Part shown: piece after piece, positions 27,253 through 61,391 of the stretch
Position numbering within the stretch: the first letter of the stretch is position 1
How the letters are laid out: each line of letters opens with the position of its first letter
Source: Bacteroidetes bacterium B1(2017)
GTDB lineage: Bacteria; Bacteroidota; Bacteroidia; UKL13-3
Assembly (NCBI GenBank): GCA_002256395.1
Contig: NKJG01000008.1
Coordinates: 62,001 to 126,000, forward strand
Direction of reading: 5' to 3'
Length of the DNA stretch: 64,000 nucleotides
Program-made: the position numbers and the translations under genes
The notes under the pieces: generated by a model
The model's database searches: none
What the model was told of the DNA's origin: nothing
Seen by the model: the letters and a program-made list of their open reading frames with translations, nothing else

Positions 27253-30200
27253 CTAAATGGCGTTTTGCTCTCGCCATCTTTGCGGTGTCATCCCAAACTC
27301 TTGCTTAAATATACGGCTGAAATAAGCAGGGTCATGAAACCCACAGTCCATTGCTATTGCCGCAATGCTGTAGCCTGAACTCTTTATCATCTCTTTGGCT
27401 TTTACCAATCTGACATAGCGAATAAAATGGGTGGCGGAAAGTCCAGTTAAAGCGGAAAGTTTACGGTGGAATTGGGAGTGGCTCAAGGCCATGTGGCGGC
27501 AGAGTTTTTCTACATCGAAATCAGTGGAATCCAAGTGGGCTTCGATTGCTTTTCTGACTTTAATTACGAATGCATTTTCCAAACTATCAGCAAAAGGAAT
27601 ACTTGGGCTTTTGCTTCCCTTTTCATCACCATTCAAAATACTACCAGAAGTTGGCAATGTGTTTTGAACATGGAGGGCATTTTCTTTAGACATAGTAGTA
27701 TCTAAAGTATACCTATAGTATTTTTGCAATTGCCGACGCAAATCAAGCAAGTTCTTGATACGCAACAAAAGTTCTTTTTTGTTAAACGGTTTTGTTAGGT
27801 AGTCGTCTGCACCTAGCTCAAGGCCCTCCAATCTGCTGTCTAAATCGGCTTTGGCAGTGAGCATGATGATGGGTATATGGCTAGTGCGTTCATCGGCTTT
27901 CAATGCTTTACACACTTCAAATCCATCTTTGAACGGCATCATCACATCTAATACAATCAGATCAGGTACACTATTTAAAGCAAGGGCTTCACATTCCTGT
28001 CCGTTTTTCGCAACCTCTATAACATAGTCATTGTTCAAACAGGATGCAAGATAGGATCGGACATCTTCGTTGTCGTCCGCAACTAATATGCGGGGTCTAT
28101 CAAACGTGCTATCTTTGTCTGTAAGATCTTGCGAAGTCAAAAAAGGCAAGGAATTGTCAATTGTCTTGATAACTATCGGGTCAGGTACTTCGTCATTAAT
28201 AATAGTTTTAAAAAGTGGTGTTTTTGGGCCCGTTTCTTCAAAATTCTTAATTTGCCAAAAAGGGAAGTTTATTTCAAATTCAGCACCTTTGCCTTGATTG
28301 CTTTTGACAGAAATGGTACCTTTCATTATTTTTACTAGCTCACGGGTAAGTGCCAAACCAATACCCGTACCTTCTCCTTGCCTCGTATGTGTACCGTCCG
28401 ATTGGTAAAAGCGATCAAAAATAAGTGGCAAGTCAGCTTCGGTTATACCAATGCCTGTGTCTTTTATTTTTAGGACGATCCTATCATTATTGATGTAGGA
28501 GGATACATATACATGGCCTCCCTTGGGTGTAAATTTAATCGCATTGGATAGAACATTGGAAACAATTTGCTGCAACCGTACTTCATCAAAATCCATGATT
28601 ATTGTTTCAGAATCTGGCATAAAGTGAAGCTGAACTCCCTTGTTTTCGGCTAAAGAATGGAAGCTTTCCACAATATACCTGAGAAATGAAACAATATCTG
28701 CCCGCTGATAATGCAAAGTTAATTTGCCACTTTCTAATTTGTTTAGGTCGAGCATTTGATTGACGAGCGTAAGCAGATTTTGTCCATTGCGGATAATCAT
28801 GGTCAGACCTTCCCTTAAATGTCGTTTTGGGTCGTCGAAAACTTGTTGTGCCATGCCCAAGATAACAGTCAACGGAGTACGGAATTCGTGGGTAATATTG
28901 GTGTATAATCTCGTTTTTACCTCATCCAATTCTTTTAATCGCAAGGTTTCCGCTTGCTGCAAACGTTGCTTGAGTTCATATTGATATAATGCGTATATAC
29001 TCCCCCCAATTAACACAAAATAGCAAATATATGCCCACCAAGTAAACCACCAGGGTGGACGAATAGTAAATGTATAACGTAGTTCTTTGCTCCAACCGCC
29101 CTCCTTGTTAATGGCTTTTGCTTTGAATGTATAGGTACCAGGTGACAAATTGCTATACGTTGCTTCGTTTTGATCGGTCAAGGCAGTCCAGTTGTCTTCA
29201 ACGCCTTCCAGTTGATGTTGGTATTTCATCATCCCGGGCGATTGCACGGTGATTCCTGTAAAATGAAAACTGAGGTAGTTGTTGTTGTATGCCAAACCTA
29301 AACCTTGTGGAGTGTTGTGCCATTTAGAAATTCCTTCCAGCTGATATCGAGCCAATTTTATGCCGTTTCTAAGGATAATACTGGAATCTTTTTTATGTAC
29401 TAAATCAGCCCATGGAATGTTTTCACTAAACAATGCCACATTGGTTAATTGCAGGTTAGGTGAGGAAGTGTCTGCCTTTAATCCCTTAGATTGAAATACA
29501 GAGAGTTTGTCTCCTGTACCGACCCAGATAGCTCCATTTTCATCTTCAAATATAGATTTATCAGTGTCTTTAAACCCATCTTCTGCGGTATAGTTTATAA
29601 AAAAAGCATCATTTTCAATAACAATCCCACGTTTGGTTTTTTCAGCAATTTCAGCTTGTTTTTCGTGCGTAAGTTTGGAAAGCCCTGCACCCGTTCCAAA
29701 CCAAAGGTTGCCAAATTTATCCTCCAAAATGCTCCCTACAGAATTATTGCTCAATCCATCTTTTTCTGTAAAATAGGTAAAGGTTTTGCCATCGTATTTC
29801 ACGAGGCCACTGCCAAGGGTACCGAACCACAGATTGCCTTTTTTATCCACTAAAATGCTCAAAATATCATTACTCAACCCTTGTTTTTCTGTAAAATGCG
29901 TAAACGACTTACCATCATATTTTGTAACGCCACCACCTCTCGTGCCGAACCATAAATTCTCGTTTTTGTCTTCTGCGATACAGTTAACAATATTATGGCT
30001 CAATCCTTCCTTTGTAGTATAATGCATGAACGTTTTTCCATCGTATTTAGAAACACCTCCAAAATCAGTGCCTATCCAAATGTTTCCGCTTTTATCTTTG
30101 GCAAGACATGTAACTCTGTTAATACTTAGTCCTTCATTTTCTTTAAAAATTGAAAAAGATTTTCCATCATATTTAGTAAGGCCGCCATCCCATGCACCAT

Positions 30201-31707
30201 ACCATAAGTTTCCAGAGTAATCTGTGATGATACTGGTAACAAGGCGAGAATAGGTAGAACCTTTTACTTCAAACTTAGAAAAATTTTGTCCATCGAATTC
30301 TAAAATACCTCCACCATAGGTACCAATCCAAATGTTCCCATTTTTACCTTCTGTAATGCTCGAGGCGGGATAGCTTAGCCCTTCCTTTTTAGTAAAATGC
30401 TTTACTTTTGGATTATAATATTTAGAAATACCATCGCCATTAGTACCAAACCACAGGCTCCCACTTTTATCTTCTACTATACTTTGGATATTACTGGAAG
30501 GAAGTCCTTTTAAAACAGTAAAAAATGTCAAATTTTGACCGTCGAATTTTGAAACTCCACCGCCCCAGTTGCTGAACCAAATGTTTCCATCTTTGTCATC
30601 TTGAATACTCAAAACGAAATCATTGGGTAGCCCTCCTTTTTGGGTAAAATGTTCGAAGTTTTGCCCATCGTATTTTGAAATTCCTCCCCCTTGCGTGCCA
30701 AACCATAGATTACCTTTTTGATCCTCAGAAATACAAGTAACGATATTATGGCTAAGCCCTTCCTTTATTGTGAAATTACTAAAAGATTTTCCGTCATATT
30801 TTGACACACCGCCACCATCCGTACCCATCCATAAATTGCCACTTTTATCTTTGATAATATGAAGGATACTGTTAAAACAAAGCCCTTCTTTCTTTGTAAA
30901 ATGCGTAAAATATTTGCCATCATATTTTGAAACTCCACCTTCAAGTGTACCAATCCATATATCTCCATTTCTGTCCCCCATGATGCTAAAGATGTAATCG
31001 TTGCAGAGTCCTTCTTTTGTCGTAAAACGGGTAAAGTTTTGCCCATCGTATTTCGTAACTCCACCACCCCAAGTGCCAAACCAAAGATTCCCGTTTTTAT
31101 CTTCAAATTGGCATGAAACACTATTATTGCTAAGCCCTTCATTTTTGGTAAAAATGCTTAGATTTTGCCCATCATACTTTGCTGTACCTCCGCCATTTGT
31201 GCCAAACCATAGATTCCCGCTTCTATCTTTTATAATTGATTGAATATTGGTGTTTTGTAAACCTTGCAACTTATTAAAAGAACTGAAATTTTCTGAATTT
31301 TGGTCAACGCTTGCAAGCTCTTTTGCTGGAATAACCTCGGGTAATCCAGCCAATACTGGGTGTTCCATTGCAAGAACTTTTTTGGGGAGTGAGAATCCGC
31401 CAAAACCAGGTGTATTTGTTGATGGCAAGCCAGCTTCAACTACTTTCGGTTTCAAAGTTGCATTGGTTGTTGATTGGAAGCCGGTAATTTTTTGCTTTTC
31501 TACAGGTACTACGGTTGGATTGCCAACAGTTACTATTTTGGGAGATGCCATGCTATCATTGGGAACTACATAACCCTTAGCATCCACTATTTTAAGCTGA
31601 TGATTTCTCGGAAGGCCATCTTGGTTTTGTTTGCAGGAAAACAAAATACATCCAAATATCATCAATAAGCCCAAAATATACATTCTACAATAAAATTGGA
31701 CCATCAT
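27253..31707 (-). CDS. hybrid two-component sensor with AraC-type output (HTCS) and 14-blade propeller
   Basis: This 1484-residue protein starts with a lipoprotein-like signal (GLLMIFGCILFSCKQ) and a proline-rich stalk to about residue 150. Fourteen two-component-propeller repeats (WFGT-GGG-SKYDG type) form two seven-bladed propellers. A Y_Y_Y domain, a membrane helix (about 905-925), HisKA with His940 in NITHEFRTPLTV, HATPase, a receiver with Asp near 1252 (VLDVMMPF) and a C-terminal AraC-type HTH (about 1380-1484) follow. Bacteroidetes HTCS proteins of this architecture bind oligosaccharides and activate nearby genes. It is the last gene of its operon, overlaps the previous stop by 4 bp, and is the only array member with its own receiver and DNA-binding domain. 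Confidence 0.93.
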   Translation of the reverse strand: MMVQFYCRMYILGLLMIFGCILFSCKQNQDGLPRNHQLKIVDAKGYVVPNDSMASPKIVTVGNPTVVPVEKQKITGFQSTTNATLKPKVVEAGLPSTNTPGFGGFSLPKKVLAMEHPVLAGLPEVIPAKELASVDQNSENFSSFNKLQGLQNTNIQSIIKDRSGNLWFGTNGGGTAKYDGQNLSIFTKNEGLSNNSVSCQFEDKNGNLWFGTWGGGVTKYDGQNFTRFTTKEGLCNDYIFSIMGDRNGDIWIGTLEGGVSKYDGKYFTHFTKKEGLCFNSILHIIKDKSGNLWMGTDGGGVSKYDGKSFSNFTIKEGLSHNIVTCISEDQKGNLWFGTQGGGISKYDGQNFEHFTQKGGLPNDFVLSIQDDKDGNIWFSNWGGGVSKFDGQNLTFFTVLKGLPSSNIQSIVEDKSGSLWFGTNGDGISKYYNPKVKHFTKKEGLSYPASSITEGKNGNIWIGTYGGGILEFDGQNFSKFEVKGSTYSRLVTSIITDYSGNLWYGAWDGGLTKYDGKSFSIFKENEGLSINRVTCLAKDKSGNIWIGTDFGGVSKYDGKTFMHYTTKEGLSHNIVNCIAEDKNENLWFGTRGGGVTKYDGKSFTHFTEKQGLSNDILSILVDKKGNLWFGTLGSGLVKYDGKTFTYFTEKDGLSNNSVGSILEDKFGNLWFGTGAGLSKLTHEKQAEIAEKTKRGIVIENDAFFINYTAEDGFKDTDKSIFEDENGAIWVGTGDKLSVFQSKGLKADTSSPNLQLTNVALFSENIPWADLVHKKDSSIILRNGIKLARYQLEGISKWHNTPQGLGLAYNNNYLSFHFTGITVQSPGMMKYQHQLEGVEDNWTALTDQNEATYSNLSPGTYTFKAKAINKEGGWSKELRYTFTIRPPWWFTWWAYICYFVLIGGSIYALYQYELKQRLQQAETLRLKELDEVKTRLYTNITHEFRTPLTVILGMAQQVFDDPKRHLREGLTMIIRNGQNLLTLVNQMLDLNKLESGKLTLHYQRADIVSFLRYIVESFHSLAENKGVQLHFMPDSETIIMDFDEVRLQQIVSNVLSNAIKFTPKGGHVYVSSYINNDRIVLKIKDTGIGITEADLPLIFDRFYQSDGTHTRQGEGTGIGLALTRELVKIMKGTISVKSNQGKGAEFEINFPFWQIKNFEETGPKTPLFKTIINDEVPDPIVIKTIDNSLPFLTSQDLTDKDSTFDRPRILVADDNEDVRSYLASCLNNDYVIEVAKNGQECEALALNSVPDLIVLDVMMPFKDGFEVCKALKADERTSHIPIIMLTAKADLDSRLEGLELGADDYLTKPFNKKELLLRIKNLLDLRRQLQKYYRYTLDTTMSKENALHVQNTLPTSGSILNGDEKGSKSPSIPFADSLENAFVIKVRKAIEAHLDSTDFDVEKLCRHMALSHSQFHRKLSALTGLSATHFIRYVRLVKAKEMIKSSGYSIAAIAMDCGFHDPAYFSRIFKQEFGMTPQRWREQNAI

Positions 31708-33704
31708 TTTGTTAGATAAGGTAATTGAATTATGAATGTAGTTCCTACGCCTTCTTTCGTTTCTACCTCAATCGTGCCACCATGCCCTTTTGTAATAATA
31801 TCATAAGCCAAACTAAGCCCTAAACCTGTACCATCACCAGTTGGTTTGGTAGTGAAGAAGGGTTGAAATATTTTAATTTTGATTTCTTCAGACATTCCTT
31901 TGCCATTGTCTTTTACGCTTATTATTATTCCATTTTTAACACATGCCGTTTTGATTTCAACAAGCGGATTTTTGACACCTTTTGTGGCATAAAAAGCATT
32001 ATTAATCAAGTTCAACAATACCCTTCCAAAATCTTGAGGAATAACTTTGATTTTAGGTAAATTTTCATCAAATTCTGTCTTGAAATCGCTATTAAATGAA
32101 CTATCCTTTGCTCTCAAACCATGATAAGCCAATCTTAAATATTCATCTGCCAAAGCATTAATATCGGTTAATTCTTTTTCACCCGTGCTTGTTCTTGAAT
32201 GCTCGAGCATACCTTTTACGATGCTGCTGGCTCGTTTTCCGTGTACCGTTATTTTCTCCAGGTTTTGAGAAATGTCATTAAAAATTTCATCTACTAATGA
32301 TTCATCTTGATTTTCTTTGGGCTTTTGTCTTTCCTCTTTTATCTCTTGAACTAGCTCAGCACTTACTTCCGAGAAGTTATTGACAAAATTCAAAGGGTTC
32401 TGAATCTCGTGGGCAATTCCTGCAGTGAGTTCTCCGAGGCTGGCGAGTTTCTCGGATTGGATGAGTTGGGCTTGGGTGGATTTGAGGGTTTCCAGTGTTT
32501 GTTGGAGTTGGGTACGTTGTTGGTGGATTTCGTCGCGTTGGCGTTGAAGTAGGGCATTGGCTTTTTGCTTTTGGCGGTTGTTGCGATAAAGAAAGAGACT
32601 AAAAACAGATACAAGGAATAACCCACCAAGCAATGCATAAAACCGAATGGAATTGGTGTATTCTGCTTTGGCTTTTTCTACCTCCTGCATTCGTTCTTTT
32701 TCCTGATATTCTAAGTCAATCAGGCGTTGGGTATCGCCTTGTTCTTCAAATTCTTTAAAGCCTGCGATGGCTATTTTATAATACTTGTTGGCTTCCCAAT
32801 GTTTGTTGAGCTTCTCATAAACGGTAGCGACTCTAAAGCTATAATTTTTTTTTGCCGTCAACGAATCAGCACTTATAGAACCCATCTGATAGGCTAATTG
32901 GTAATAGTGAAGGGCAGAGTCAAGTTGATTAAAGCGGAGGTAAAAACCGCCAATTAATGAGGTTTGTTCCCTAATTTTTTTTTGATCGTTGAATTTTTTA
33001 TAAAGTGCCAACGCTTGTCTACCGTAGTCCCGTGATTTTGAATAGGATTTCTCCATAAATAATATTATCGATTTGAACTGTAAGGCGTCTGCTCTTCTTA
33101 GATTATTTTCAGGATTAAGTTGGAGCGATTGATCAATGTAGTATTTGGCAGAGTCTAACTGATTTATTTCGGGGTTGTAGTAGGTACTCCCTATGCTATT
33201 TAAAACACTTATTAATTCTTCCTTGTTGTTGATTTTTCGGGCCAGTTGTTCTACTTTCAAGTAGTTGGAGAGTTCTTTGCGATAATCTTTCTTAAAAAAG
33301 TGAATACGTGAGAAACTGCGTAAGCTTCTGATTATGCCCAGGGTATCGTTTAGCTCCTCGTAAATTTTAAGGCTCTTTTGATAATTTTCAATCGCTGTCA
33401 CACGAATAGAACTGGCGTAATTTATATTGCCCAATATTAATAACGCCTCTGCCTCCCCGATTCGATAATTAATCTTTTGGCTTAATTCAAGTGCTTGATT
33501 GGTGTAGCGTGTTGCAATGTCTGCGTTACGGATAGGCGAAGGGAGTCCCAAGGCTTTGCCCAGTTTTAGGAGCACATTTATTCGGCTCGTGTCGGGCTTC
33601 GTCTTAGTCAATTGGATTTTTAGGCTATCAATAGTTTGTCGGCTTTGAGCAAAACCAAGGCTGCAAGTGACGGCAATCAAGAGTAAAAACAGTAATCTCT
33701 TCAT
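31704..33704 (-). CDS. TPR-type histidine kinase, array member A
   Basis: This 666-residue kinase has a signal peptide (MKRLLFLLLIAVTCSLGFAQ), a periplasmic domain of about six TPR-like helical repeats (40-330), one membrane helix (SIRFYALLGGLFLVSVFSLFLY, about 350-372) and a coiled coil. The DHp domain carries His432 in [15 protein letters not shown]. The ATPase domain has N box [10 protein letters not shown]1 DNGKGMS and G2 GTGLGLS. Its DHp hairpin loop is the KEERQKPKENQDESLVDEIF type. The N-terminal ~400 residues are almost identical to those of 43561-45540, but the DHp loop and C-terminus differ, so the two are duplicates with exchanged catalytic parts. It has no cognate receiver of its own. 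Confidence 0.95.
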   Translation of the reverse strand: MKRLLFLLLIAVTCSLGFAQSRQTIDSLKIQLTKTKPDTSRINVLLKLGKALGLPSPIRNADIATRYTNQALELSQKINYRIGEAEALLILGNINYASSIRVTAIENYQKSLKIYEELNDTLGIIRSLRSFSRIHFFKKDYRKELSNYLKVEQLARKINNKEELISVLNSIGSTYYNPEINQLDSAKYYIDQSLQLNPENNLRRADALQFKSIILFMEKSYSKSRDYGRQALALYKKFNDQKKIREQTSLIGGFYLRFNQLDSALHYYQLAYQMGSISADSLTAKKNYSFRVATVYEKLNKHWEANKYYKIAIAGFKEFEEQGDTQRLIDLEYQEKERMQEVEKAKAEYTNSIRFYALLGGLFLVSVFSLFLYRNNRQKQKANALLQRQRDEIHQQRTQLQQTLETLKSTQAQLIQSEKLASLGELTAGIAHEIQNPLNFVNNFSEVSAELVQEIKEERQKPKENQDESLVDEIFNDISQNLEKITVHGKRASSIVKGMLEHSRTSTGEKELTDINALADEYLRLAYHGLRAKDSSFNSDFKTEFDENLPKIKVIPQDFGRVLLNLINNAFYATKGVKNPLVEIKTACVKNGIIISVKDNGKGMSEEIKIKIFQPFFTTKPTGDGTGLGLSLAYDIITKGHGGTIEVETKEGVGTTFIIQLPYLTK

Positions 33705-33706
33705 TT

Positions 33707-35725
33707 TCAGTTATTTTGAATCGGTAGTTTTACAATAAACGTTGTACCTTCTTTTTCCACACTTTCCACCTCAATAGTTCCGCCATGTCCTTTGGTCACA
33801 ATATCATACGCCAAACTCAGTCCTAAGCCCGTGCCTTGTCCAGTGGGTTTGGTGGTAAAGAAAGGTTGTAAAATTTTGGCTTTTATGTCGTCACTCATTC
33901 CTGTGCCGTTATCGCTTACTTTGATAATGAGTTGATTTTCAGTTTGTTCAGTTTTTACCATCACCAAAGGTTTTTCAACGGTTTTGACTGCCCAGAAGGC
34001 ATTGTTTATCAAATTCAATAAAACTCGACCCATGTCTTGGGAAATGACTTCTATTTTGGGGAGGTTTTCATCAAAGTCAGTCTGATAATCAGATTCAAAC
34101 GAATTGTCCTTCGCCTTAATACCATGATAGGAAAGCCGTAAATATTCATCTGCCAAAGCATTAATATCTGTTAATTCTTTTTCGCCTGAGCTTGTTCGTG
34201 AGTGTTCTAACATTCCTTTTACAATTGAGCTCGCACGTTTGCCATGGTGGTTGATTTTTTCTAAATTCTGCTTTAAATCGCTCGCTATCTCTAAGGCAAT
34301 GTCAGTATTCCCCTCTTTCATTTCTTCTTCCATTTCCGCCACTAACTCTCCGCTGACCTCCGAAAAGTTATTGACAAAATTCAAGGGGTTTTGTATTTCG
34401 TGGGCAATTCCTGCGGTGAGTTCACCGAGAGAAGCGAGTTTTTCTGATTGGATGAGTTGGGTTTGGGTGGCTTTGAGCTGAGATAAGGTGCTTTCCACTT
34501 TATCTTTCTGTTCCTGTAAGACCTGATTCGCTTTTTGTTTTTGCCGATTGTTGCGGTAAAGAATAAAACCTATGATGGAAAGAACAGCAAGTACTGCCAG
34601 AAAACCATAGGTCCTGATTTTTGATTGTGTTTCAATTTGCTGCTTTTCCAATTCCCTCAAACGGGTGGCTTCGCTTAGTAACAAACTCTGAAAGTTGGCC
34701 AGGTTCTTGTATTTTTCTTTATTCCACGCCTCTTTTGTAGTGAGGGTAAGCCTCAGATATTTAAAAGCACTATCTGGTTGATTGTTGAGCAAATACGCTT
34801 TGTATAATACCTCGTAAACTCCTCCGTCCCTAAACCATTTAGAATTTATTAATCCTGGCTCAGAACCTACTTCGTATGCTTTTTTGGCATAGTAAAGGGA
34901 AGAATCTTTAACCCCACTATTCTGATGTACCGAGGACAGAGTTCTATATACGAGTAACAACATACGCCTGTTAGTTTCCTTATATTCGATAGCGATTTGC
35001 AATGCCTTATAGATGTATTCTCTACCCAATTCGTCATTTTTCGCCTTAAAGTTCTTACGAGCCAGGGAAAGGATAGGTTGGGTCTTCCATCCACTATTGA
35101 TCTGTTCGAAAAGCTTTACGGACTTCTGTGCATATACTTCCACAGAATCAAGTTGGTCTTCATCATAGTACTGACTTGCAATTGCAGCCGAAGCACTGGC
35201 TATTCTAAAATAATCTTTGATTAATGACGCTATCCTTACACTTTCTTTATAATAAAAAATGGCCTGTTCAGTATTACCTGTTTCTTCCATTAATGCCCCA
35301 TACAACTGATGGGCAAAAGCCAATCTATTTAATCTATATTCAGCAGGTATTTCTTTTCCTAAACCATACGCATTTTTTTCGGAAGCGGGGTTTTGTAAAA
35401 TTTCAAATGCTTGTAATAAACTTTTCAGTGTTGCTGCATATTCTCCTTTTTCCCTTAATGCGAATGCCTGCCAAGTCAAAAAACGTCCTTCGTGTAATGA
35501 CTGCTTGCTTTTTCGTGAAATAAATAGGCCCTTCGTCGCATACAATAGCACAGAGTCATAATTAGATGCCTGATAGTAATTTGCAATCCTATCAATTGAC
35601 CTTAACCTAATAGAGTCGTGTGTAGCGGTATTGAGTGCATTCCTTAGGCTGTCAATTTTGGATTGTTGGGCAAAGGATGCGGCCGTAATAAACAGAGTTA
35701 GCAATAGTGTTGTAAATAATTTCAT
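33707..35725 (-). CDS. TPR-type histidine kinase, array member B
   Basis: With the ATG at 35725 the product has 672 residues and a normal signal peptide (MKLFTTLLLTLFITAASFAQ); an in-frame ATG at 35734 would add three residues. The periplasmic part has TPR-like helices beginning QSKIDSLRNALNTATHDSIR, followed by one membrane helix (YGFLAVLAVLSIIGFILYRNN), a coiled coil, DHp with His442, the EMEEEMKEGNTDIALEIASD hairpin loop and a complete ATPase domain. It is closest to 45543-47588 and to 51698-53710. The stop lies 2 bp from the start of member A. Confidence 0.95.
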   Translation of the reverse strand: MKLFTTLLLTLFITAASFAQQSKIDSLRNALNTATHDSIRLRSIDRIANYYQASNYDSVLLYATKGLFISRKSKQSLHEGRFLTWQAFALREKGEYAATLKSLLQAFEILQNPASEKNAYGLGKEIPAEYRLNRLAFAHQLYGALMEETGNTEQAIFYYKESVRIASLIKDYFRIASASAAIASQYYDEDQLDSVEVYAQKSVKLFEQINSGWKTQPILSLARKNFKAKNDELGREYIYKALQIAIEYKETNRRMLLLVYRTLSSVHQNSGVKDSSLYYAKKAYEVGSEPGLINSKWFRDGGVYEVLYKAYLLNNQPDSAFKYLRLTLTTKEAWNKEKYKNLANFQSLLLSEATRLRELEKQQIETQSKIRTYGFLAVLAVLSIIGFILYRNNRQKQKANQVLQEQKDKVESTLSQLKATQTQLIQSEKLASLGELTAGIAHEIQNPLNFVNNFSEVSGELVAEMEEEMKEGNTDIALEIASDLKQNLEKINHHGKRASSIVKGMLEHSRTSSGEKELTDINALADEYLRLSYHGIKAKDNSFESDYQTDFDENLPKIEVISQDMGRVLLNLINNAFWAVKTVEKPLVMVKTEQTENQLIIKVSDNGTGMSDDIKAKILQPFFTTKPTGQGTGLGLSLAYDIVTKGHGGTIEVESVEKEGTTFIVKLPIQNN

Positions 35726-35740
35726 ATACGTCATGGTATT

Positions 35741-39427: not shown

Positions 39428-39655
39428 AATGGAAAAATAATTTTGAATACGAAGCTTCTATCGATTCTGATTTTATATTTTTATTAAATGTAGTTTTCTT
39501 ATTACTATTATTTGTACTGTCCTTAATCGTTATGCCATGATCCTTCACCATATCATAAATTGTCTAAATCACCGATTTGCACAGATGAATGGGTGGCACG
39601 GATTTGATTTTTATGTTATTCAACCGTGCAATCTTTTAATCATTTCAATTGTGGT

Positions 39656-39960
39656 TCAGACAACTGGTAACTGAACAATAAACTCACTGCCCTCTCCCTC
39701 TTTCGTCTCCACTTTCAACTCCCCACCATGTGCTTTTACGATGTCATAACTCAATCCTACTCATTCTCTAATAGGCTATATAGTAAAATAGGGTTGAAAG
39801 TATTATCCAGTGTTTTTTGAAGGAAGTCGTTACCGTTGTTTCTCACTCTAATCAAAATTTTGCCACTATCTTTCTTTGTGCTCACCTCAATAATTGGCTT
39901 ATATGCTTTGCCTTCTACATTCAGTTTTTGCTTTTTTATTCACTATTGTAAAAGCACTCG
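39656..39960 (-). pseudogene. relic of an array-type histidine kinase (ATPase domain)
   Basis: The minus strand, with frame changes and stops, reads PIIEVSTKKDSGKILIRVRNNGNDF, then FNPILLYS in place of FQPFFTTK, a broken G2 box, and YDIVKAHGGELKVETKEGEG followed by SEFIVQLPVV and a stop at 39656. The KAHGGELKVE tail resembles KANGGELKVE of 43561-45540 rather than the KGHGGT tail of the other members. The relic lies between the Tricorn-like protease and member C. The DNA at 39428-39655 contains only AT-rich sequence and a stretch (about 39570-39615) resembling Bacteroidota intergenic repeats. Confidence 0.85.
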
Positions 39961-40018
39961 TATCGTAAATTTTCATTTTCATACGAATCCAAAATCAATC
40001 AGCTATTTTATCCTTACA

Positions 40019-40059
40019 AAAAAGGTTAAGCATAAAGACTTCCTATGCTTAACCTTTTT
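40019..40059. terminator. intrinsic terminator of the Tricorn-like protease gene
   Basis: AAAAAGGTTAAGCATA (40019-40034) pairs perfectly over 16 bp with TATGCTTAACCTTTTT (40044-40059) around a 9-base loop. It lies 19 bp past the stop of the minus-strand gene at 40078. Confidence 0.92.
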
Positions 40060-40077
40060 GAAGGAAAGTATCGCTTT

Positions 40078-45540: not shown

Positions 45541-45542
45541 TT

Positions 45543-47588: not shown

Positions 47589-47603
47589 ATACGTCATGGT
47601 ATT

Positions 47604-49580: not shown

Positions 49581-49583
49581 GGG

Positions 49584-51695: not shown

Positions 51696-51697
51696 AT

Positions 51698-53710: not shown

Positions 53711-53712
53711 GG

Positions 53713-54873
53713 TTATTCAATAAAATTATTCCAAGGTTTAACAGTAATGTTGTTACTTCTATTTTGGGTCTGATTACCTCCATAAACCACTATCTTTTCT
53801 GTATTGGGCGTTTCTAATGTCGAAAAATAATTAAGCCCTTTAAAAAAATCATTGCTAATCGTTTCTCCTGCTTTTAGCTCAATTGCTGTCAAATTACCTT
53901 CATTTTCTGTAATAATATCCACCTCATTGCCTGTTTTATCTCGCCAATAAAAAAGATTGTCGTTTTCGCCAACGTTAAATCTGTTTTTGAGTAACTCGCT
54001 CACTATCAGATTTTCAAATAAAGATCCTTTGGCAGCATGAATGGTTATTTGTTCAGCACTTTTGATGCCCAACAGCGAACAAGCCACTCCAGTATCATAA
54101 AAATAGAGTTTGGGTGTTTTCGTAATCCGTTTATTGTAATTGTTGAAATAGGGTTTCAAAAGGTAAATAATGTAGCTACTTTGCAAAATACCGAGCCATG
54201 CAGCCACCGTTTTTTGGTCAATACCGCAATCATTTGCCAACGAACTCATGTTTAATATTTGCCCTGTTCGCCCTGCACACATTCTCAAAAGCTTCATAAA
54301 TAGCGAAAGATTATTGATGTTTTTGAGTTGCCTCACATCTCTTTCTATATAAGTGCTGATGTAATTGGGAAACCAATCGGTAGGTTTTATGTCTTCCGAA
54401 ATCACTTCTGGATACCCGCCTGTAATGATGTGCCAAGCGTAATTGTTTTTGAGAAAATTGCCTGTTTTCATTTCCTCCAACGACAAAGGCAAAAGTTGTA
54501 AATAAGCAATACGCCCCGAAAGCGTTTGGGTAATATTTTCTTGTAACAAAAAATTATTTGAACCGGTCAGGATAAACAAGCCTTTCGTTTTTGTTTCGTC
54601 CAAAATCTGTTGCAAGTAAGAAAATAGGTGTGGTGCTTTCTGAATTTCATCAAGAATTGCCCCATTTTCGTTATTGAATTGCGATAAAAACCCTCGTGGG
54701 TCAATTGTTGCAAATTCCAAAACATCTGGATTTTCTAAGGAAACGTAAGGTTTTTCGGGAAAAACGGCACGGCAAAGTGTAGTTTTTCCACTTTGCCGAG
54801 GTCCGACAACAGCTACACTACGAAATGTTTTTGATAGATGAATTAGCCTTTCGGTTGCTGTTCTATAAATCAT
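53713..54873 (-). CDS. AAA_14 / DUF4143 ATPase
   Basis: This 386-residue protein has an AAA_14 domain with Walker A GPRQSGKTT (about 24-32), Walker B GAILDEIQKAP and sensor ILTGSNNFLL. A helical region contains YIERDVRQLKNI, and the C-terminal DUF4143 domain has a PD-(D/E)XK-like core (ENLIVSELLKN, FYWRDKTGNEVDII, LTAIELKAG). The family is widespread in bacteria, often duplicated and sporadic, with no firmly established role. It sits inside the kinase array, 2 bp before the next kinase but 65 bp after the previous one, and has no sequence relation to the kinases, so it looks inserted. Confidence 0.92.
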   Translation of the reverse strand: MIYRTATERLIHLSKTFRSVAVVGPRQSGKTTLCRAVFPEKPYVSLENPDVLEFATIDPRGFLSQFNNENGAILDEIQKAPHLFSYLQQILDETKTKGLFILTGSNNFLLQENITQTLSGRIAYLQLLPLSLEEMKTGNFLKNNYAWHIITGGYPEVISEDIKPTDWFPNYISTYIERDVRQLKNINNLSLFMKLLRMCAGRTGQILNMSSLANDCGIDQKTVAAWLGILQSSYIIYLLKPYFNNYNKRITKTPKLYFYDTGVACSLLGIKSAEQITIHAAKGSLFENLIVSELLKNRFNVGENDNLFYWRDKTGNEVDIITENEGNLTAIELKAGETISNDFFKGLNYFSTLETPNTEKIVVYGGNQTQNRSNNITVKPWNNFIE

Positions 54874-54938
54874 ATTTGAATATTATCTTTGGACAAATAT
54901 AGAATTTAATTCCGAATTTGTCCAAAATATTTCCTAAA

Positions 54939-56921
54939 CTAAATCGGCAATTTTACAATAAACTCCGTCCCCTCTCCTTCCACACTATCCACTTCAATCG
55001 TGCCACCATGCCCTTTAGTAATAATATCATAAGCCAAACTCAGCCCCAAACCAGTGCCCTGCCCTGTCGGTTTTGTGGTAAAAAACGGTTGAAATATTTT
55101 GGCTTTGGTTTCTTCTGACATCCCTATGCCGTTATCTTTTATAGTGATGAATATTTCATTTCCCAATATATCAGTCTTGACCTCAACAAGCGATTTTTTG
55201 GCACCTTTCGTGGCATAAAAGGCATTATTGAATAAATTCAATAAAACTCGACCTATATCTTGTGGAATGACTTTAATTTTTGGTAATTTTTCGTCAAAAT
55301 CAGTTTTGAAGTCAGCATTGAAAGAGCTGTCCTTTGCTCTTAAACCATGATAAGCAAGCCTTAAATATTCATCTGCCAAAGCGTTGATATCGGTTAATTC
55401 CTTTTCACCTCTGCTAGTGCGTGCGTGTTCTAACATCCCTTTTACGATACTACTAGCTCTTTTGCCGTGAAGCGTGATTTTCTTTAGGTTTTGAGAAATG
55501 TCATTAAAAATTTCATCTACCAATGATTCATCCTGATTTTCTTTTGGCTTTTGCCTCTCCTCTTTTATTTCCTGAACTAGCTCAACACTCACTTCTGAGA
55601 AATTATTCACAAAATTCAAAGGGTTTTGTATCTCATGTGCGATGCCTGCGGTGAGTTCTCCGAGCGAGGCAAGTTTTTCGGATTGGATGAGCTGGGCTTG
55701 GGTAGATTTGAGTTTTTCTAGGGTGGATTCAATTTGTTCTTTTTGTGATGCCAGCAAAACATTAGCCTTTCTCTTTTGATGATAACTGTAAAGCAACACT
55801 GCCCCAAACACAAGAAACACGAATAAAGCAATGAGTAAAGAATACATCCGAACTTTCCCCTGTTTTTCTACTTCTTCACGCTGCAAATCTTTCAGCTTTA
55901 GTTGTCTATCTAATAATACTTGTTGAAATTCTGCAAGGTTTGAAATTGTTTTTTTAGTAAAAAATGCTCTTTCTTTATTGGCAAATTGTAAGTATTTAAA
56001 AGCACTATCTCGTTGAGCAAACTGCTGAAAGTGCTGATACATGTTTTCATATGCGGATGCTAAATCCACTTTTACAAGTTGAACTTCTCTGATTTGCTTT
56101 AATAGATTCAATGATTTGATGCCATAATAGTAGCTTGAATCTCTTCTATTTAAGTGTTGATAGGCTTTGGATAAGCCCAGATAATTAATAGACAAGCCAA
56201 TTTCCAAATCAAAATTATTTTTCAAAACATTCTCAATTCCTTTTGAGAATAAACTCTTTGCTTGCTCATAATTACCTGCTTCTAATCTTATATCACCAGC
56301 CTGGTAAAAAATGTAAAACAAATATACCCCGAACTTATCGACAGGATTTGCGAAAATTCTATCTATATAAAATTGGGCTGAGTCTAGTCTATTATTATGT
56401 TGGAAAGAAAAAGCTATATTACTCAGAATGGAAGTTTGTTGCCAAAGCCTATTCCTTTCCTTTGCCATCTGATATGCTTTTTTATAATATTGCAATTGCT
56501 CTTCGGTGTTTGCCGTTACACCCATCAGCATTCCATAATTAAACAATTCGTTGTTATATCCTCCCCAGAATCTATCATAGTAGTTCCCTTTTTTGTCCAG
56601 TCTATTAAACAAAAGCTGATTTTCAGGATTTTCGTAAACATCAAGCTTGTTACTATAGGCATCATACACTGGAGCATAGTGTCCATTATTCAAGTTTTCT
56701 AATAAATTACCCCTACCCCGTCCAACATTATCTATGATTTCCAATATTATTTTGGCTTTTGTAGTGTCATTATTAGCATTTCTAAGTTGCTTTTCTAAAG
56801 AATCGTTAGTAGCATTTCGACTTTGTGTTTGTAAAGAATCGTATTTAAAAGATACTATTTTTTGAGCAAAACCAAGGCTACAAATAATTACGAGTAGAAG
56901 GGTGAGGCTAAGTGTTTTCAT
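54939..56921 (-). CDS. TPR-type histidine kinase, array member E
   Basis: This 660-residue kinase has a signal peptide (MKTLSLTLLLVIICSLGFAQ) and a diverged helical, TPR-like sensor (HYAPVYDAYSNKLDVYENPENQ onward). One membrane helix (YSLLIALFVFLVFGAVLLYSY) and a coiled coil (LLASQKEQIESTLEKLKS) precede DHp with His429 and the KEERQKPKENQDESLVDEIF loop. Its ATPase N box reads NLFNNAFYA. The DHp segment (55332-55690) is nearly identical at DNA level to that of 47604-49580, 7.3 kb away, although the sensors are unrelated. Confidence 0.95.
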   Translation of the reverse strand: MKTLSLTLLLVIICSLGFAQKIVSFKYDSLQTQSRNATNDSLEKQLRNANNDTTKAKIILEIIDNVGRGRGNLLENLNNGHYAPVYDAYSNKLDVYENPENQLLFNRLDKKGNYYDRFWGGYNNELFNYGMLMGVTANTEEQLQYYKKAYQMAKERNRLWQQTSILSNIAFSFQHNNRLDSAQFYIDRIFANPVDKFGVYLFYIFYQAGDIRLEAGNYEQAKSLFSKGIENVLKNNFDLEIGLSINYLGLSKAYQHLNRRDSSYYYGIKSLNLLKQIREVQLVKVDLASAYENMYQHFQQFAQRDSAFKYLQFANKERAFFTKKTISNLAEFQQVLLDRQLKLKDLQREEVEKQGKVRMYSLLIALFVFLVFGAVLLYSYHQKRKANVLLASQKEQIESTLEKLKSTQAQLIQSEKLASLGELTAGIAHEIQNPLNFVNNFSEVSVELVQEIKEERQKPKENQDESLVDEIFNDISQNLKKITLHGKRASSIVKGMLEHARTSRGEKELTDINALADEYLRLAYHGLRAKDSSFNADFKTDFDEKLPKIKVIPQDIGRVLLNLFNNAFYATKGAKKSLVEVKTDILGNEIFITIKDNGIGMSEETKAKIFQPFFTTKPTGQGTGLGLSLAYDIITKGHGGTIEVDSVEGEGTEFIVKLPI

Positions 56922-56923
56922 GG

Positions 56924-58207
56924 TTATATATGCTGAATAGGTAATTTTATAGTAAATGTAGTTTCTTCACCTTCCACGCTTTCGCATTCAATCATTCCAC
57001 CGTGACCTTTAGTTACAATATCATAAGCCAAACTTAGTCCCAAACCTGTGCCCTCGCCAGTAGGTTTTGTGGTGAAAAATGGTTGGAATATTTTGGCTTT
57101 TGTGGCCTCGGACATTCCTGTACCATTGTCTTTAATGGTTATTAACAATTGGCTATTAGCTAATATATGGGTGCTTACAATTACTTTTGGTTCATAACCC
57201 ATTTCTGCTTTTTTACTTCTTTCGTTGGCTGCATAAAAGGCATTATTAATTAAATTCAATAATACTCTCCCAAAATCTTGCGGTACAACCATCATTTTTG
57301 GGAGGTTTCCGTCAAAATCAGTTTTGAAATCAGAATTAAAAGTGGGATCCTTGGCCCTCAGCCCATGATAAGAAAGATTTAAATACTCCTCTGCTAATTT
57401 GTTTATGTCGGTCAATTCTTTTACGCCAGAGCTGGTTCTTGAATGCTCTAGCATGCCTTTTACAATAGAACTGGCTCTCTTACCGTGGTAGTTGATTTTT
57501 TCAAGGTTTTGTGAAATATCAGAAAGTAATTCCTGTTCTTCAATTCCTCCTTTGGGGCTTAAGGGGCTTTTAAGTTCTTCCAACAACTCCAAACTCACTT
57601 CAGAAAAATTATTGACAAAGTTTAAAGGGTTCTGGATTTCATGAGCTATACCTGCCGTAAGCTCGGCCATAGAGGTCATTTTCTCTTGGTGAATAAGCCT
57701 TTGCTGCACCAATTTTTGCCTGAACCTAAATAAGATATAGAAATAAACTAAAATGCCTAAAAAAATCAAAGCGTAGGTAAAAAGCATTGGAATAAACCAC
57801 CATTTGTTCACAATATTGCCCGCCACTTTAAACTTAAACTTGGCTGGAACATCCCCCTTCTCGCCAGTTTTTACTAAAAATGTGTACTCCCCAGCATTTA
57901 GATGTGCATATTGCACCTGATTGCAGTCTTCGCATTTGATCCAGGTATAATCTAAGCCATCCATCCAATAATAAAAAACTCTATTTTTTGGATTCTTTTT
58001 ATTCTCAAAAACAAAATGGAGATAATTCTGACTATACTGCAATCTAACAGCCTCATTTTTAGATATTTTAAGGCCTGAATCTTTAAATCCTTCATAGTTG
58101 TTACCAAGTTTCACAGCTGTAATTTGAGCCAAAGGTTCCTTTTTCTGGCCAAAAACCACAGAATTTGACAATAACATCAGAAATAAAAATGACTTAATGA
58201 TTTTCAT
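56924..58207 (-). CDS. Y_Y_Y-domain histidine kinase without propeller, array member F
   Basis: This 427-residue kinase has a signal peptide (MKIIKSFLFLMLLSNSVVFGQ) and a single Y_Y_Y-type beta-sandwich (about 30-130; YYWMDGLDYTWIKCEDCNQVQYAHLNAGEYTFLVK). A membrane helix (WWFIPMLFTYALIFLGILVYFYILF), DHp with His189 and a full ATPase domain follow. It looks like a propeller kinase that has lost all propeller blades. The hairpin loop ELKSPLSPKGGIEEQELLSD and the ATPase insertion ANERSKKAEMGYEPKVIVST are both repeat-derived-looking. The linker differs from other members (HQEKMTSMAELTAG). Confidence 0.94.
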   Translation of the reverse strand: MKIIKSFLFLMLLSNSVVFGQKKEPLAQITAVKLGNNYEGFKDSGLKISKNEAVRLQYSQNYLHFVFENKKNPKNRVFYYWMDGLDYTWIKCEDCNQVQYAHLNAGEYTFLVKTGEKGDVPAKFKFKVAGNIVNKWWFIPMLFTYALIFLGILVYFYILFRFRQKLVQQRLIHQEKMTSMAELTAGIAHEIQNPLNFVNNFSEVSLELLEELKSPLSPKGGIEEQELLSDISQNLEKINYHGKRASSIVKGMLEHSRTSSGVKELTDINKLAEEYLNLSYHGLRAKDPTFNSDFKTDFDGNLPKMMVVPQDFGRVLLNLINNAFYAANERSKKAEMGYEPKVIVSTHILANSQLLITIKDNGTGMSEATKAKIFQPFFTTKPTGEGTGLGLSLAYDIVTKGHGGMIECESVEGEETTFTIKLPIQHI

Positions 58208-58208
58208 A

Positions 58209-58874
58209 TTATAAGGTCCGTTTGCTTGACAGAATCAAGGAATATGCAAAAAACGAATACATGACCATCTTGATGAGCGACCACAAGACGTAATACTGAA
58301 GAATGAGGTTTTGAGAATAATTCATAACCGCTAAGCTGAAGAAATCAAACGACCCAAAAAGATTGTAAATAATAAGGCCGCTACAAATCCAAACTACGGG
58401 TTGTTGAAATACTTCGACCTCTAAGTTGTCTTTAAATTGGTGATTTAAAACAAACAATGAAAGCACTACTAAAAAGATTTTTTCGACTAAAATTGAGATC
58501 GCAAAATCTTTGAATTTAGTAATGAATAATGCGTCGATGATTATAAAAATCAATACCGATGCCCCAGCTAATAACCAAAACCACCTTTTGGTTTTAGATG
58601 AATAAACTTTGTGGAGTAGATAAGTATAAACTATAAGATCTAAACTGCCCAAAAAACAACTGGAAATAAATGCTGAACTAGAATTAAATAAAGCAAATAA
58701 TTGAAAAAACATCAAACTGAGTCCAATAGTCAAGCCTTTCAACAGATGGTCGAGCTTCTTAAAATAATACAAGCCAACGCCTATAGGAATCAATATATAA
58801 TAATTAGCCAAATCGTTCAAAAATGTAGCTAAATCCATCAATTCCATAAAATCATAGCAATTTATTCCATTCAA
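58209..58874 (-). CDS. polytopic membrane protein of unknown function heading the kinase block
   Basis: This 221-residue protein has about seven hydrophobic helices and short loops, with no motif that I recognise. Starts at 58874 and at 58847 (MELMDLATFLND) are both possible; the second gives a more usual N-terminus. The stop is 1 bp from the start of kinase member F, so the two are almost certainly co-translated. It could serve as a separate membrane sensor subunit for that kinase, which has only a small periplasmic domain. This role is inference. Confidence 0.75.
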   Translation of the reverse strand: MNGINCYDFMELMDLATFLNDLANYYILIPIGVGLYYFKKLDHLLKGLTIGLSLMFFQLFALFNSSSAFISSCFLGSLDLIVYTYLLHKVYSSKTKRWFWLLAGASVLIFIIIDALFITKFKDFAISILVEKIFLVVLSLFVLNHQFKDNLEVEVFQQPVVWICSGLIIYNLFGSFDFFSLAVMNYSQNLILQYYVLWSLIKMVMYSFFAYSLILSSKRTL

Positions 58875-58908
58875 AAAAAATGTTCACCTAATTTCAAATG
58901 TTGATTAT

Positions 58909-59667
58909 TTACTCCATACATCTGAATGGTGGGCAGGATCTGGCATTAGCAGCGTACAAAGTCCGATTAAAATCAAAGGTGGTATAGACTTTATCAGAAA
59001 CTGTTTTCTTAGCAGGTGATACGCCTCTAAGCATTAGGTGAATGCAATTCCAATCGTTTGCATTAAATCCTTTCAACAAGCCATACTTGACCTCAATATG
59101 CGTAAATCCTTCATTTTTAAAGTCGTTTGCTAAGGTATTAAGCCCGACAAAATCTAGATAATAACCATTAACAAAGCCCATACCTCCAGGAACCAAATTA
59201 GTTATTTTGTTTGCAAAAAAATCTTTTTGTGTTTTAAAAAATGCTTTCTTATTAGTTGCCGTATTCAAAACTTGGCTTGTAAATTCGTGCTTTGAATATT
59301 TAGTTGGAGGCAATAACAAATTTTCAGACTCAAATAAATTGACAGCCCCAGCAATAAAAAACATCCTGTTTGAATTGCTCGATGCCAAGGCATAATAAAT
59401 ACATAAATGGGAGAGATTTTCAGATTTGTATTTATCCAAATTATTAAGGAGAGATTTAATAGAAATTAATTCAGGACTGGCATCGTTTTGTTGAAAACCC
59501 AATTGATCAAATGATTTCTCCATAGCCACTAGTTTGGCCTTACCGGCATAATCCGAAACCACAAAAATATCAGGATCATTTAAACTACTTTTCAATGAAA
59601 TATGAGTTTGGGCAAAAGAACTAACAGCCAACATAAAAAAGAAAAAGAAGAAATTAATTGTTTTCAT
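58909..59667 (-). CDS. secreted protein of unknown function heading the kinase block
   Basis: This 252-residue protein has a signal peptide (INFFFFFFMLAVSSFAQ) and a mixed alpha/beta mature part (LVAMEKSFDQLGFQQNDASPELISIKSLLNNLDKYKSENLSHLCIYYALASSNSNRMFFIAGAV). It ends in a two-cysteine tail (SCPPFRCME). I do not recognise the family. It is the first gene of the block 43561-59667, with a 34-bp gap to the membrane protein, and may be a periplasmic ligand-binding component. Confidence 0.7.
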   Translation of the reverse strand: MKTINFFFFFFMLAVSSFAQTHISLKSSLNDPDIFVVSDYAGKAKLVAMEKSFDQLGFQQNDASPELISIKSLLNNLDKYKSENLSHLCIYYALASSNSNRMFFIAGAVNLFESENLLLPPTKYSKHEFTSQVLNTATNKKAFFKTQKDFFANKITNLVPGGMGFVNGYYLDFVGLNTLANDFKNEGFTHIEVKYGLLKGFNANDWNCIHLMLRGVSPAKKTVSDKVYTTFDFNRTLYAANARSCPPFRCME

Positions 59668-60047: not shown

Positions 60048-61391
60048 CTAAGTAGATAATTTTATCACGAACGTGGTGCCGACTCCTTCGATACTTTCTA
60101 CTTCTAAAGTACCTCCATGCCCCTTCGTCACAATATCATAAGCTAAGCTTAAACCTAAGCCCGTACCCTTTCCTGTAGGTTTGGTGGTGAAAAACGGTTG
60201 GAAAATCTTCTCCATATTATCTTCCGAAATACCAGCTCCGTTGTCTTTCACACGTATTTCTATTGCGTTATCTATTTTAAGCGTAGAAACTGTTACTAAT
60301 GGCTTATAGGTAGTTTCCCCATTCACTTTACTTTGGGCTCGGCTACGCTCCGCACATGCATAAAAAGCATTGTTGATAAGGTTGAGAAATACCCGACCAA
60401 TATCTTGTGGCACAACCTCAATGACCGGCAAGTTTGGATCTAATTCAGTTTTAAAGTCGGCATTAAAAGTCTTGTCTTTGGCCCGTAATCCATGGTAACT
60501 GAGTCGCAGAAATTCGTCTGCAAGGGCATTAATGTCTGTGGTTTCTTTTTGTCCAGTGTTAGTTCTAGAATGCTGAAGCATTCCTTTCACTATACTTGCA
60601 GCACGCTTTCCATGGTGGTTTATTTTTTCGAGATTTTGTTTAATATCTGATAGCAATTCCTCCTCTTCAATTCCTCCTCGGGGTGTTTCTGGACTCAACA
60701 ACTCCTCAATTAGTTCCATATTGAGTTCTGAAAAATTATTCACGAAGTTTAAAGGATTCTGTATTTCATGAGCAATTCCGGCGGTAAGTTCACCCAATGA
60801 AGCCAGTTTTTCTTGTTGAACCAACTGATTTTGGGTAGCTTTTAGTTCTTCAACCGTAGATTCCAATTGTTCTTTTTGTGCCGAAATTTCAGAAGTTCGC
60901 TCTCTAACGAGAATCTCTAGTTTTTCATTTTCACCAACAACTAGCCTGTTTTTCTCTTCTTCTTTTTTTAGTGCCTTGATTTGGTTATTCGTACTTATGG
61001 CAAAAGCAATCATCCAAAACAAACTCCCTAGAAATACCAAATCTATAATCGAATCATTTTCTTTGGTAAAACTTGAAAAAAAATATTCCATGATGTCCCT
61101 CAGGCTATTCACAATAAAAAATGGTAACCCCGCTTTTAGCAATGAACTGGCCAAATTATTTTCTCTAAGCAGCCACAAAACATACATTATTGCTGAAAAG
61201 ACCACAAACCAAACGAAATTGATGGTTGGAAGAAACCGCTCAAATGAATTAAAGTTTAGAAGCAACAAAAAAGGAACAATGAACAAGTTCAGAACCTTTA
61301 AATATTGATCGTATTGAGGTAGTGACTCCTTCGTATTTAGGTGAGTGCGGATAAATCTTAGTGCAAAAAAGGCGATGAGAAAATTCTGCAT
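60048..61391 (-). CDS. membrane-helix histidine kinase, array member G
   Basis: This 447-residue kinase has no signal peptide. Its N-terminal ~130 residues are about five membrane helices ([44 protein letters not shown]) without an extracellular domain. A coiled coil ([30 protein letters not shown]) leads to DHp with His208 and the hairpin loop [20 protein letters not shown], then an ATPase domain. An insertion, [17 protein letters not shown], follows NLINNAFYA and is encoded by the repeat at 60335-60359. It is separated from the main block by 380 bp and is transcribed alone. Confidence 0.94.
60335..60359. repeat. small interspersed repeat inserted in frame in a kinase gene, second copy
   Basis: GGGCTCGGCTACGCTCCGCA then CATGC matches the repeat at 45826-45850 in the TCGGCTnCGCTCnGCACA core and occupies the same position in the ATPase domain of another array kinase, again without breaking the frame. 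Confidence 0.7.

What the first reader, a model, noticed from the sequence alone, without database searches (positions are those of the whole stretch)
27253..61391. A 34-kb tandem array of eleven paralogous histidine kinases and one hybrid sensor with no separate response regulators
Seen: eleven intact kinases on one strand share a near-constant DHp/ATPase half ([33 protein letters not shown]). They carry at least five sensor types: three kinds of TPR-like domain, a 14-blade propeller, 7TMR-DISM, a bare Y_Y_Y and membrane helices only. Gaps between most genes are 1 to 15 bp, so stoichiometric co-expression is likely. No separate receiver gene lies inside the array; only the hybrid sensor at 27253 has a receiver, and its own HisKA belongs to another lineage. 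Inference: this is a many-inputs, shared-output signalling board, possibly with heterodimers among kinases, and not a set of independent two-component systems.
Basis: partly seen in the sequence, partly recalled or inferred. Interest (0 to 1): 0.85.

Follow-up and report, generated by a model that had tools for sequence, protein, structure and literature searches.

The report
Expandable sensor-kinase array feeding adenylate cyclase
A bacterium carries a row of eleven sensor kinases with different antennae but almost the same engine, near a shared relay protein and a cyclase that probably makes cyclic AMP; related bacteria have the same layout, and the number of kinases at this spot varies from one to eleven within one genus.

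Summary
Four unrelated genes and one decayed kinase also lie inside. 'No separate response regulators' comes from where the boundary was drawn: 2.2 to 3.6 kb further on lie a CheY-like receiver (24705-25076) and a receiver-cyclase (23660-24700), with a second kinase relic beside them. In related Bacteroidota, kinases of this family recurrently end in this pair: 28 of 31 cyclase hits in 79 related loci are kinase-CheY-REC-cyclase, and 24 sampled genomes hold 116 kinases against 25 REC-cyclases. But 28 of 52 kinase runs with visible downstream DNA lack the pair. The contig is a contaminant of its bin; its host is Lacihabitans. At the same locus three relatives have 0, 2 and 4 kinases between a conserved first kinase and the conserved pair; the window has 10. 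Cores are mosaic: unrelated sensors share near-identical core stretches. Best reading: a many-sensors-to-one-output module acting on cAMP, diversified by duplication and recombination. Phosphotransfer is inferred, not shown; heterodimers are untested. Nine topical searches of an open-access library listed no prior description.

The parts
60048..61391 (-). Kinase K1, membrane-helix sensor (7TMR-DISM under cutoff); conserved in the four Lacihabitans loci compared (window included)
56924..58207 (-). Kinase with Y_Y_Y sensor
54939..56921 (-). Kinase with remote TPR-like sensor (no Pfam sensor hit; about 25% identity to TPR-type sensors)
51698..53710 (-). Kinase, TPR sensor type B
49584..51695 (-). 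Kinase, multi-helix membrane sensor, no Pfam sensor family
47604..49580 (-). Kinase, TPR sensor
45543..47597 (-). Kinase, TPR sensor type B; first gene of a duplicated two-gene block
43561..45540 (-). Kinase, TPR sensor type A; second gene of the duplicated block
35741..39427 (-). Kinase with Reg_prop propeller + Y_Y_Y sensor
33707..35734 (-). Kinase, TPR sensor type B (other copy of the block, gene 1)
31704..33704 (-). Kinase, TPR sensor type A (other copy of the block, gene 2); overlaps the hybrid gene by 4 bp
39659..39933 (-). Decayed kinase C-terminus in the 650-bp gap
25117..25433 (-). Decayed kinase C-terminus directly upstream of the CheY gene
24705..25076 (-). CheY-like single-domain receiver (inferred shared phospho-acceptor)
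23660..24700 (-). Receiver fused to a class III nucleotidyl cyclase (inferred shared output, probably adenylate cyclase)
27253..31707 (-). Hybrid two-component system (propeller, Y_Y_Y, kinase, receiver, AraC HTH); its kinase core is not among the family hits; lodged in the array
58909..59667 (-). Protein with a signal-like N-terminus and no known family, inside the array
58209..58874 (-). Membrane-protein-like sequence without a known family, inside the array
53713..54873 (-). AAA_14/DUF4143 ATPase, passenger gene
40078..43338 (-). Tricorn-type S41 protease, passenger gene
25548..25581 (-). Terminator-like hairpin (15 pairs, T-rich tail) between array side and relic/CheY side
   Evidence: pattern match only

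Best explanation
The locus is one allele of a signalling module found widely in Bacteroidota: a variable number of tandem sensor kinases with one shared core type, with a CheY-like receiver and a receiver-cyclase at their end. Each kinase senses its own signal outside or in the membrane, autophosphorylates its histidine, and passes the phosphate to the CheY-like receiver and/or the receiver of the cyclase. Phosphorylation sets cyclase activity and so the cell's cyclic nucleotide level (probably cAMP), read by CRP-like proteins. Kinases come and go by duplication and by recombination inside the conserved core, which joins cores to other sensors without changing the partner interface. Shown here: gene content, relics, syntenic array-size variation, recurrent linkage, mosaic cores, catalytic residues in place. 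Inferred: phosphotransfer, direction of control, nucleotide made, targets.
For: Linkage: 28 of 31 cyclase hits in 79 related loci are kinase-CheY-cyclase. In 24 genomes, chosen because they hold the family, there are 116 kinases (2-13 each) but one REC-cyclase in 23 and two in one; 19 of 25 cyclases have a family kinase core under 1.5 kb upstream, 21 of 25 under 2.2 kb. CheY abuts the cyclase in 7 of 7 further regions fetched, including 4 with no family kinase in the stretch. Relic kinase beside the window's CheY. DHp helix H to H+14 exact in 185 of 216 aligned kinases; mean majority frequency 0.984 (H-12 to H+14) against 0.729 for the rest of the core. These rows were partly chosen by motif; of 139 locus kinases other than the best per locus, with no motif filter, 110 are exact. 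Syntenic locus: 0, 2, 4 and 10 kinases between K1 and CheY in four Lacihabitans loci. Mosaic cores. Cyclase aligns with the photoactivated adenylyl cyclase 5x4t at its catalytic positions; it is the sole PF00211 hit in two Lacihabitans genomes, which have 13 cNMP-binding hits each, 12 over the cutoff.
Against: Of 52 kinase runs with at least 3 kb of downstream sequence, 25 show no receiver within 1.5 kb, 2 an opposite-strand receiver and 1 a lone receiver; of single kinases only 4 of 19 have the pair. For 4 of 25 cyclases no family kinase lies within 12 kb upstream. The CheY and cyclase receivers are hardly more alike in helix alpha1 (0.47) than elsewhere (0.43), so that both are partners of the same kinases is not shown. 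In this window array and output are parted by a beta-helix gene, a terminator-like hairpin and a relic, with the hybrid gene at the array's end. I have no phosphotransfer data.
Confidence: 0.73

Rival explanations
1. The kinases are independent two-component sensors that merely duplicated in place; each signals to a different receiver elsewhere in the genome, and CheY/cyclase serves only the kinase next to it.
For: 28 of 52 observable kinase runs are not followed by the pair, 25 of them by no receiver within 1.5 kb; 4 of 25 cyclases have no family kinase within 12 kb upstream.
Against: The phospho-acceptor helix, where paralogues usually diverge to avoid cross-talk (established knowledge, recalled), is nearly invariant; kinase number varies 2-13 while the REC-cyclase stays at one in 23 of 24 genomes.
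Confidence: 0.14
2. The hybrid sensor at 27253 is the collector: the array kinases feed its receiver and AraC-type DNA-binding domain.
For: It overlaps the last kinase by 4 bp, so co-expression is likely.
Against: Its own kinase core is not among the family hits in the bin; no strong hybrid match in the three Lacihabitans stretches and only two above 250 bits in the 79 loci (L086, L059); linkage elsewhere is to CheY/cyclase.
Confidence: 0.06
3. The array size is an assembly artefact of a contaminated metagenome bin.
For: The contig does not belong to its bin; arrays of similar genes are hard to assemble.
Against: Both flanks match one Lacihabitans locus at 95-97%; the sensors are mostly distinct, which collapse would not create; arrays recur in isolate genomes.
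Confidence: 0.05

Closest known systems
MrrA hub of Caulobacter (PMC5964349; abstract and section list seen)
   [quoted passage not shown] bow-tie layout
   Different: The abstract does not speak of a tandem array, and the output runs through a phosphotransfer kinase to a stress regulator; here the linked output is a receiver-cyclase. Same working principle only by inference.
Spo0F/KinA-E sporulation phosphorelay of Bacillus (recalled)
   Same: Several kinases with different sensors feed one single-domain receiver
   Different: Kinases are scattered; output is transcriptional via Spo0B and Spo0A
REC-class III cyclase response regulators and cyanobacterial CyaC-type proteins (recalled)
   Same: Receiver controls a class III nucleotidyl cyclase
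   Different: Here a stand-alone response regulator beside an expandable set of separate kinases, with a constant CheY neighbour
Lineage-specific expansion of histidine kinases (recalled, Alm and colleagues 2006; paper not held)
   Same: Duplication of kinases and shuffling of sensors
   Different: Here expansion is at one syntenic locus with a constant output and exchange among cores
HTCS hybrid two-component systems of Bacteroidota (name recalled)
   Same: Gene 27253 has that architecture
   Different: Applies to that one gene, not to the array

Membership tests
Histidine kinase (HisKA + HATPase_c) | Phospho-acceptor His, N-box, G1, G2 | tested here: met
   11 of 11; HisKA score just under the Pfam cutoff in 3 of 11
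Operon-paired two-component system | One kinase with one adjacent cognate receiver | tested here: not met
   Eleven kinases and two relics against one CheY/REC-cyclase pair
Multikinase network on one receiver (MrrA/Spo0F type) | Several kinases phosphorylate one single-domain receiver | not testable with these tools
   Only linkage and near-invariant DHp helix support it
REC-class III cyclase response regulator | REC domain plus PF00211 cyclase | tested here: met
   catalytic positions align with 5x4t
Adenylate rather than guanylate cyclase | Adenine-selecting Lys and Asp | tested here: inconclusive
   Lys of KFIGDC and Asp of LDYTVIGD align with the adenylyl cyclase 5x4t; activity not tested; role of these residues recalled
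Hybrid two-component system (HTCS) | Propeller, Y_Y_Y, kinase, receiver, AraC HTH in one chain | tested here: met
   gene 27253 only
Chemosensory (Che) cluster | CheA, CheW and chemoreceptors near CheY | tested here: not met
   No such domains in the 30 window proteins scanned with Pfam; not every window ORF was scanned
Single operon | Continuous transcription | tested here: inconclusive
   10 of 15 junctions at most 6 bp, but gaps of 222, 380, 650 bp and a terminator-like hairpin

The most novel reading that the evidence does not exclude
The locus is a sensor-diversifying device: recombination near the almost invariant phospho-acceptor helix swaps sensors among cores between a fixed first kinase and a fixed CheY/cyclase output, so that close relatives carry different sensor sets wired to one cAMP signal, comparable to antigen or receptor cassette loci.
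Probability: 0.33. Interest if true: 0.8.

Novelty: new variant of a known kind. Interest (0 to 1): 0.64.

Why it matters
It offers a direct test of how bacteria gain new sensory inputs without evolving new outputs: keep the partner interface constant and recombine sensors upstream of it. It also names a likely partner and second messenger for a large kinase family of Bacteroidota, whose cyclic-nucleotide signalling seems little studied (my impression; the searches listed no paper that I recognised as describing this module).

Tried and rejected
Bin-wide counts of kinases and receivers were first meant as background; dropped, because the bin is mixed: two MetRS genes (59% identical) and no family kinase at E 1e-60 in 18 congeners, some of them incomplete.

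Helix alpha1 of the two receivers as proof of a shared kinase interface: not supported (0.47 against 0.43).

DHp invariance: the first count (185 of 216) used rows filtered by a His-box pattern, from loci partly found through the peptide NFVNNFSE. Rechecked without that filter on the kinases other than the best per locus: 110 of 139 exact. Weaker, but it stands; I lowered the main confidence from 0.74 to 0.73 for this.

Bacteroidota-type promoter pattern (recalled) upstream of 19 genes: one hit, before 53713; 13 matches on the minus and 6 on the plus strand of the whole window, so uninformative. Sigma-70-type promoter scans gave no excess over shuffles (62 against 59.8; 62 against 61.2), nor did terminator-like hairpins as a class (11 against 15.7; 14 against 14.7); the hairpin at 25581-25548 is singled out by its 15-pair stem and place only.

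Identity of the proteins 58909 and 58209: no Pfam or NCBIfam hit, no match among ORFs of the 79 loci or the three Lacihabitans stretches.

The left relic as the direct allele of the third kinase of CS3-21: only about 76% DNA identity over 189 bp, so left open.

Row choices: kinases in related loci were counted above 150 bits (218 of 231 hits); genome census thresholds were E 1e-80 for kinases and 1e-50 for cyclases, so more distant members are not counted. MetRS placement used genomes of 39 of the 79 loci, the census 24 of those 39. The tree used 58 rows from chosen loci and a quick search.
Full report
OBSERVATION. The window is C88:62001-126000 of a 5.5-Mb, 225-contig assembly. On the minus strand, 61391 down to 27253, there are eleven HisKA/HATPase_c kinases and one hybrid sensor. 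11 of 11 hold N-box, G1 and GTGLGLS motifs. Of 15 junctions 10 are at most 6 bp, one of them a 4-bp overlap; the rest are 34, 65, 222, 380 and 650 bp. Four other genes lie inside: two without any family (58909, 58209), an AAA_14/DUF4143 ATPase (53713) and a tricorn-type protease (40078).

The gap at 39428-40077 holds the C-terminal remains of a kinase (39659-39933), and a second relic lies at 25117-25433. The second relic sits 40 bp before a CheY-like receiver (24705-25076), which is followed after 4 bp by a receiver fused to a class III cyclase (23660-24700). A kinase of this family thus once stood next to the receiver pair; a beta-helix gene and the hybrid gene now stand between relic and array. 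A terminator-like hairpin at 25581-25548 (15 pairs) suggests that receiver and cyclase are now transcribed apart from the array here; hairpins as a class were no commoner than in shuffles (11 against 15.7).

WHOSE DNA IT IS. None of 18 congeners of the assembly has the kinase family at E 1e-60, and the bin holds two MetRS genes that are 59% identical. The window's MetRS is 98%, 97% and 95% identical to those of Lacihabitans sp. CS3-21, Lacihabitans sp. CCS-44 and L. soyangensis, and 76% or less to the rest (37 of 39 genomes gave a hit). The REC-cyclase is 100% identical in protein to that of CS3-21. The contig is a Lacihabitans contaminant of its bin, and kinase or receiver counts of that bin say little about its own genome.

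THE LOCUS IN RELATIVES. The window and CS3-21 are collinear at 95-97% DNA identity up to window 25304 and again from 60076 on. Between these points the window has 34.8 kb and CS3-21 3.9 kb. CCS-44 and L. soyangensis match the flanks at 83-88%. The first kinase (60048) is present in all four loci (sensor identity to the window 100%, 84% and 78%); between it and CheY lie 10 kinases in the window, 2 in CS3-21, 4 in CCS-44 (one with a shortened core; one more kinase lies upstream of the first) and none in L. soyangensis. The two extra sensors of CS3-21 are only 20-30% identical to their best window matches. The array therefore grows or shrinks mainly between two fixed ends; which direction is not known.

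ACROSS THE PHYLUM. A scan of genome contigs gave 79 related loci from many Bacteroidota (the best of 585, some sharing a genome). Tandem kinases are common there, and 28 of 31 cyclase hits stand in the order kinase, CheY, REC-cyclase; one is cut by a contig edge and two are not so placed. Of 52 kinase runs with at least 3 kb of sequence downstream, 24 end in CheY plus REC-cyclase (20 of 33 runs of two or more, 4 of 19 single kinases); 25 have no receiver within 1.5 kb, two an opposite-strand receiver, one a lone receiver. In 24 genomes chosen from those loci there are 116 kinases (2-13 each) and 25 REC-cyclases (one in 23 genomes, two in one). A family kinase core ends under 1.5 kb upstream of 19 of 25 cyclases and under 2.2 kb of 21; 4 have none within 12 kb. 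In 7 further regions fetched around those cyclases CheY abuts the cyclase in 7 of 7, although in 4 of them no family kinase was found in the stretch. The constant unit is CheY plus REC-cyclase, and the kinases are the variable part.

WHY ONE OUTPUT. In 216 aligned kinases the stretch from the phospho-acceptor His to H+14 is exact in 185, with mean majority frequency 0.984 for H-12 to H+14 against 0.729 for the rest of the core. Those rows were filtered by a His-box pattern and the loci partly found through NFVNNFSE; without the filter, of 139 kinases other than the best of each locus 110 are exact. This helix carries partner-choosing residues in well-studied kinases (established knowledge, recalled), so paralogues kept alike there should share a partner. 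Against this, the CheY and cyclase receivers are hardly more alike in helix alpha1 (0.47) than elsewhere (0.43; 29 pairs), so which of them is phosphorylated is open. The hybrid's receiver is less like the window's CheY (0.09 over 11 ungapped alpha1 columns, 0.29 elsewhere) than the cyclase's receiver is (0.44 and 0.39).

THE OUTPUT. The cyclase aligns with the photoactivated adenylyl cyclase 5x4t, including both metal-binding Asp, the Lys and Asp that select adenine, and the Asn and Arg of the active site (alignment; roles recalled). It is the only PF00211 hit in CS3-21 and in CCS-44 (L. soyangensis has two), and each of those two genomes has 13 cNMP-binding hits, 12 over the cutoff. A cAMP output is the likeliest reading.

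HOW THE ARRAY EVOLVES. Two genes, 45543 and 43561, form a block repeated at 33707 and 31704 (86.1% over 4048 bp). Sensors and cores have different histories. Genes 54939 and 47604 have sensors at 27-65% DNA identity per 60-nt bin, then 86-100% for nine bins beginning just before the His, then 61-85%. Genes 43561 and 31704 run at 85-100% through the sensor up to the His bin, then fall to 52-91%. Identical runs reach 207 nt in a pair only 84% alike overall. In a permutation test on polymorphic third codon positions 13 of 55 pairs (not independent of each other) had runs that none of 1000 permutations reached; 3 exceeded the longest run of any pair in any permutation. In a 58-row quick tree cores tend to group by genome in several genera, with many weak forks, while window cores mix with those of other Lacihabitans, as expected of repeated local expansion and exchange.

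MECHANISM. Best supported: signals at TPR, propeller, Y_Y_Y or membrane sensors set autophosphorylation of kinases with one core type; phosphate passes to the CheY-like protein and/or the cyclase receiver; the cyclic nucleotide level changes. Co-expression within the tightly packed blocks is likely, of the whole array doubtful. Heterodimers are neither shown nor excluded; hairpins of 37, 40 and 41 residues argue for some partner choice.

KNOWN SYSTEMS. The closest working analogue is the MrrA hub of Caulobacter, in which at least six kinases phosphorylate one single-domain receiver (PMC5964349, abstract and section list seen). Spo0F with KinA-E is another (recalled). Nine topical searches and one for the genus name of an open-access library listed no paper that I recognised as describing this kinase-array/CheY/REC-cyclase module; I saw listings and beginnings of abstracts only, capped at 8 to 15 rows a search, and most subscription journals are not held.

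VERDICT. A real, recurrent and, as far as these searches go, undescribed arrangement, best called a new variant of the many-kinases-to-one-receiver kind. Its striking point is not an absence of receivers but a fixed output with a fast-changing, recombining set of sensors.

Noticed in passing
window, whole contig (C88): The contig is a Lacihabitans contaminant in a bin of another genus; the bin holds two MetRS genes.
   Followed up: yes
58209-59667: Two genes without any known family, directly upstream of the Y_Y_Y kinase (gap 1 bp), with no match in the related loci searched.
   Followed up: partly
53713-54873: An AAA_14/DUF4143 ATPase sits between two kinases with a 2-bp gap downstream; one close relative lies about 6.7 kb past the REC-cyclase in Lacihabitans CCS-44 (L015:18894-20054).
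   Followed up: partly
22171-23637: Fusion of an N-terminal HD domain with a YitT/DUF2179 membrane protein, 22 bp after the REC-cyclase.
   Followed up: no
G036, G048, G054 (Runella), G062 (Spirosoma luteum): Genomes with 4 to 13 family kinases but none found near the CheY/REC-cyclase pair: the module is split there.
   Followed up: partly
G060, G043 (Lutimonas): Eight and eleven class III cyclase hits in genomes of 3.6 and 4.0 Mb, unlike Lacihabitans with one or two.
   Followed up: no
25640-26896: Beta-helix gene between hybrid sensor and relic, with no match in the loci compared.
   Followed up: partly
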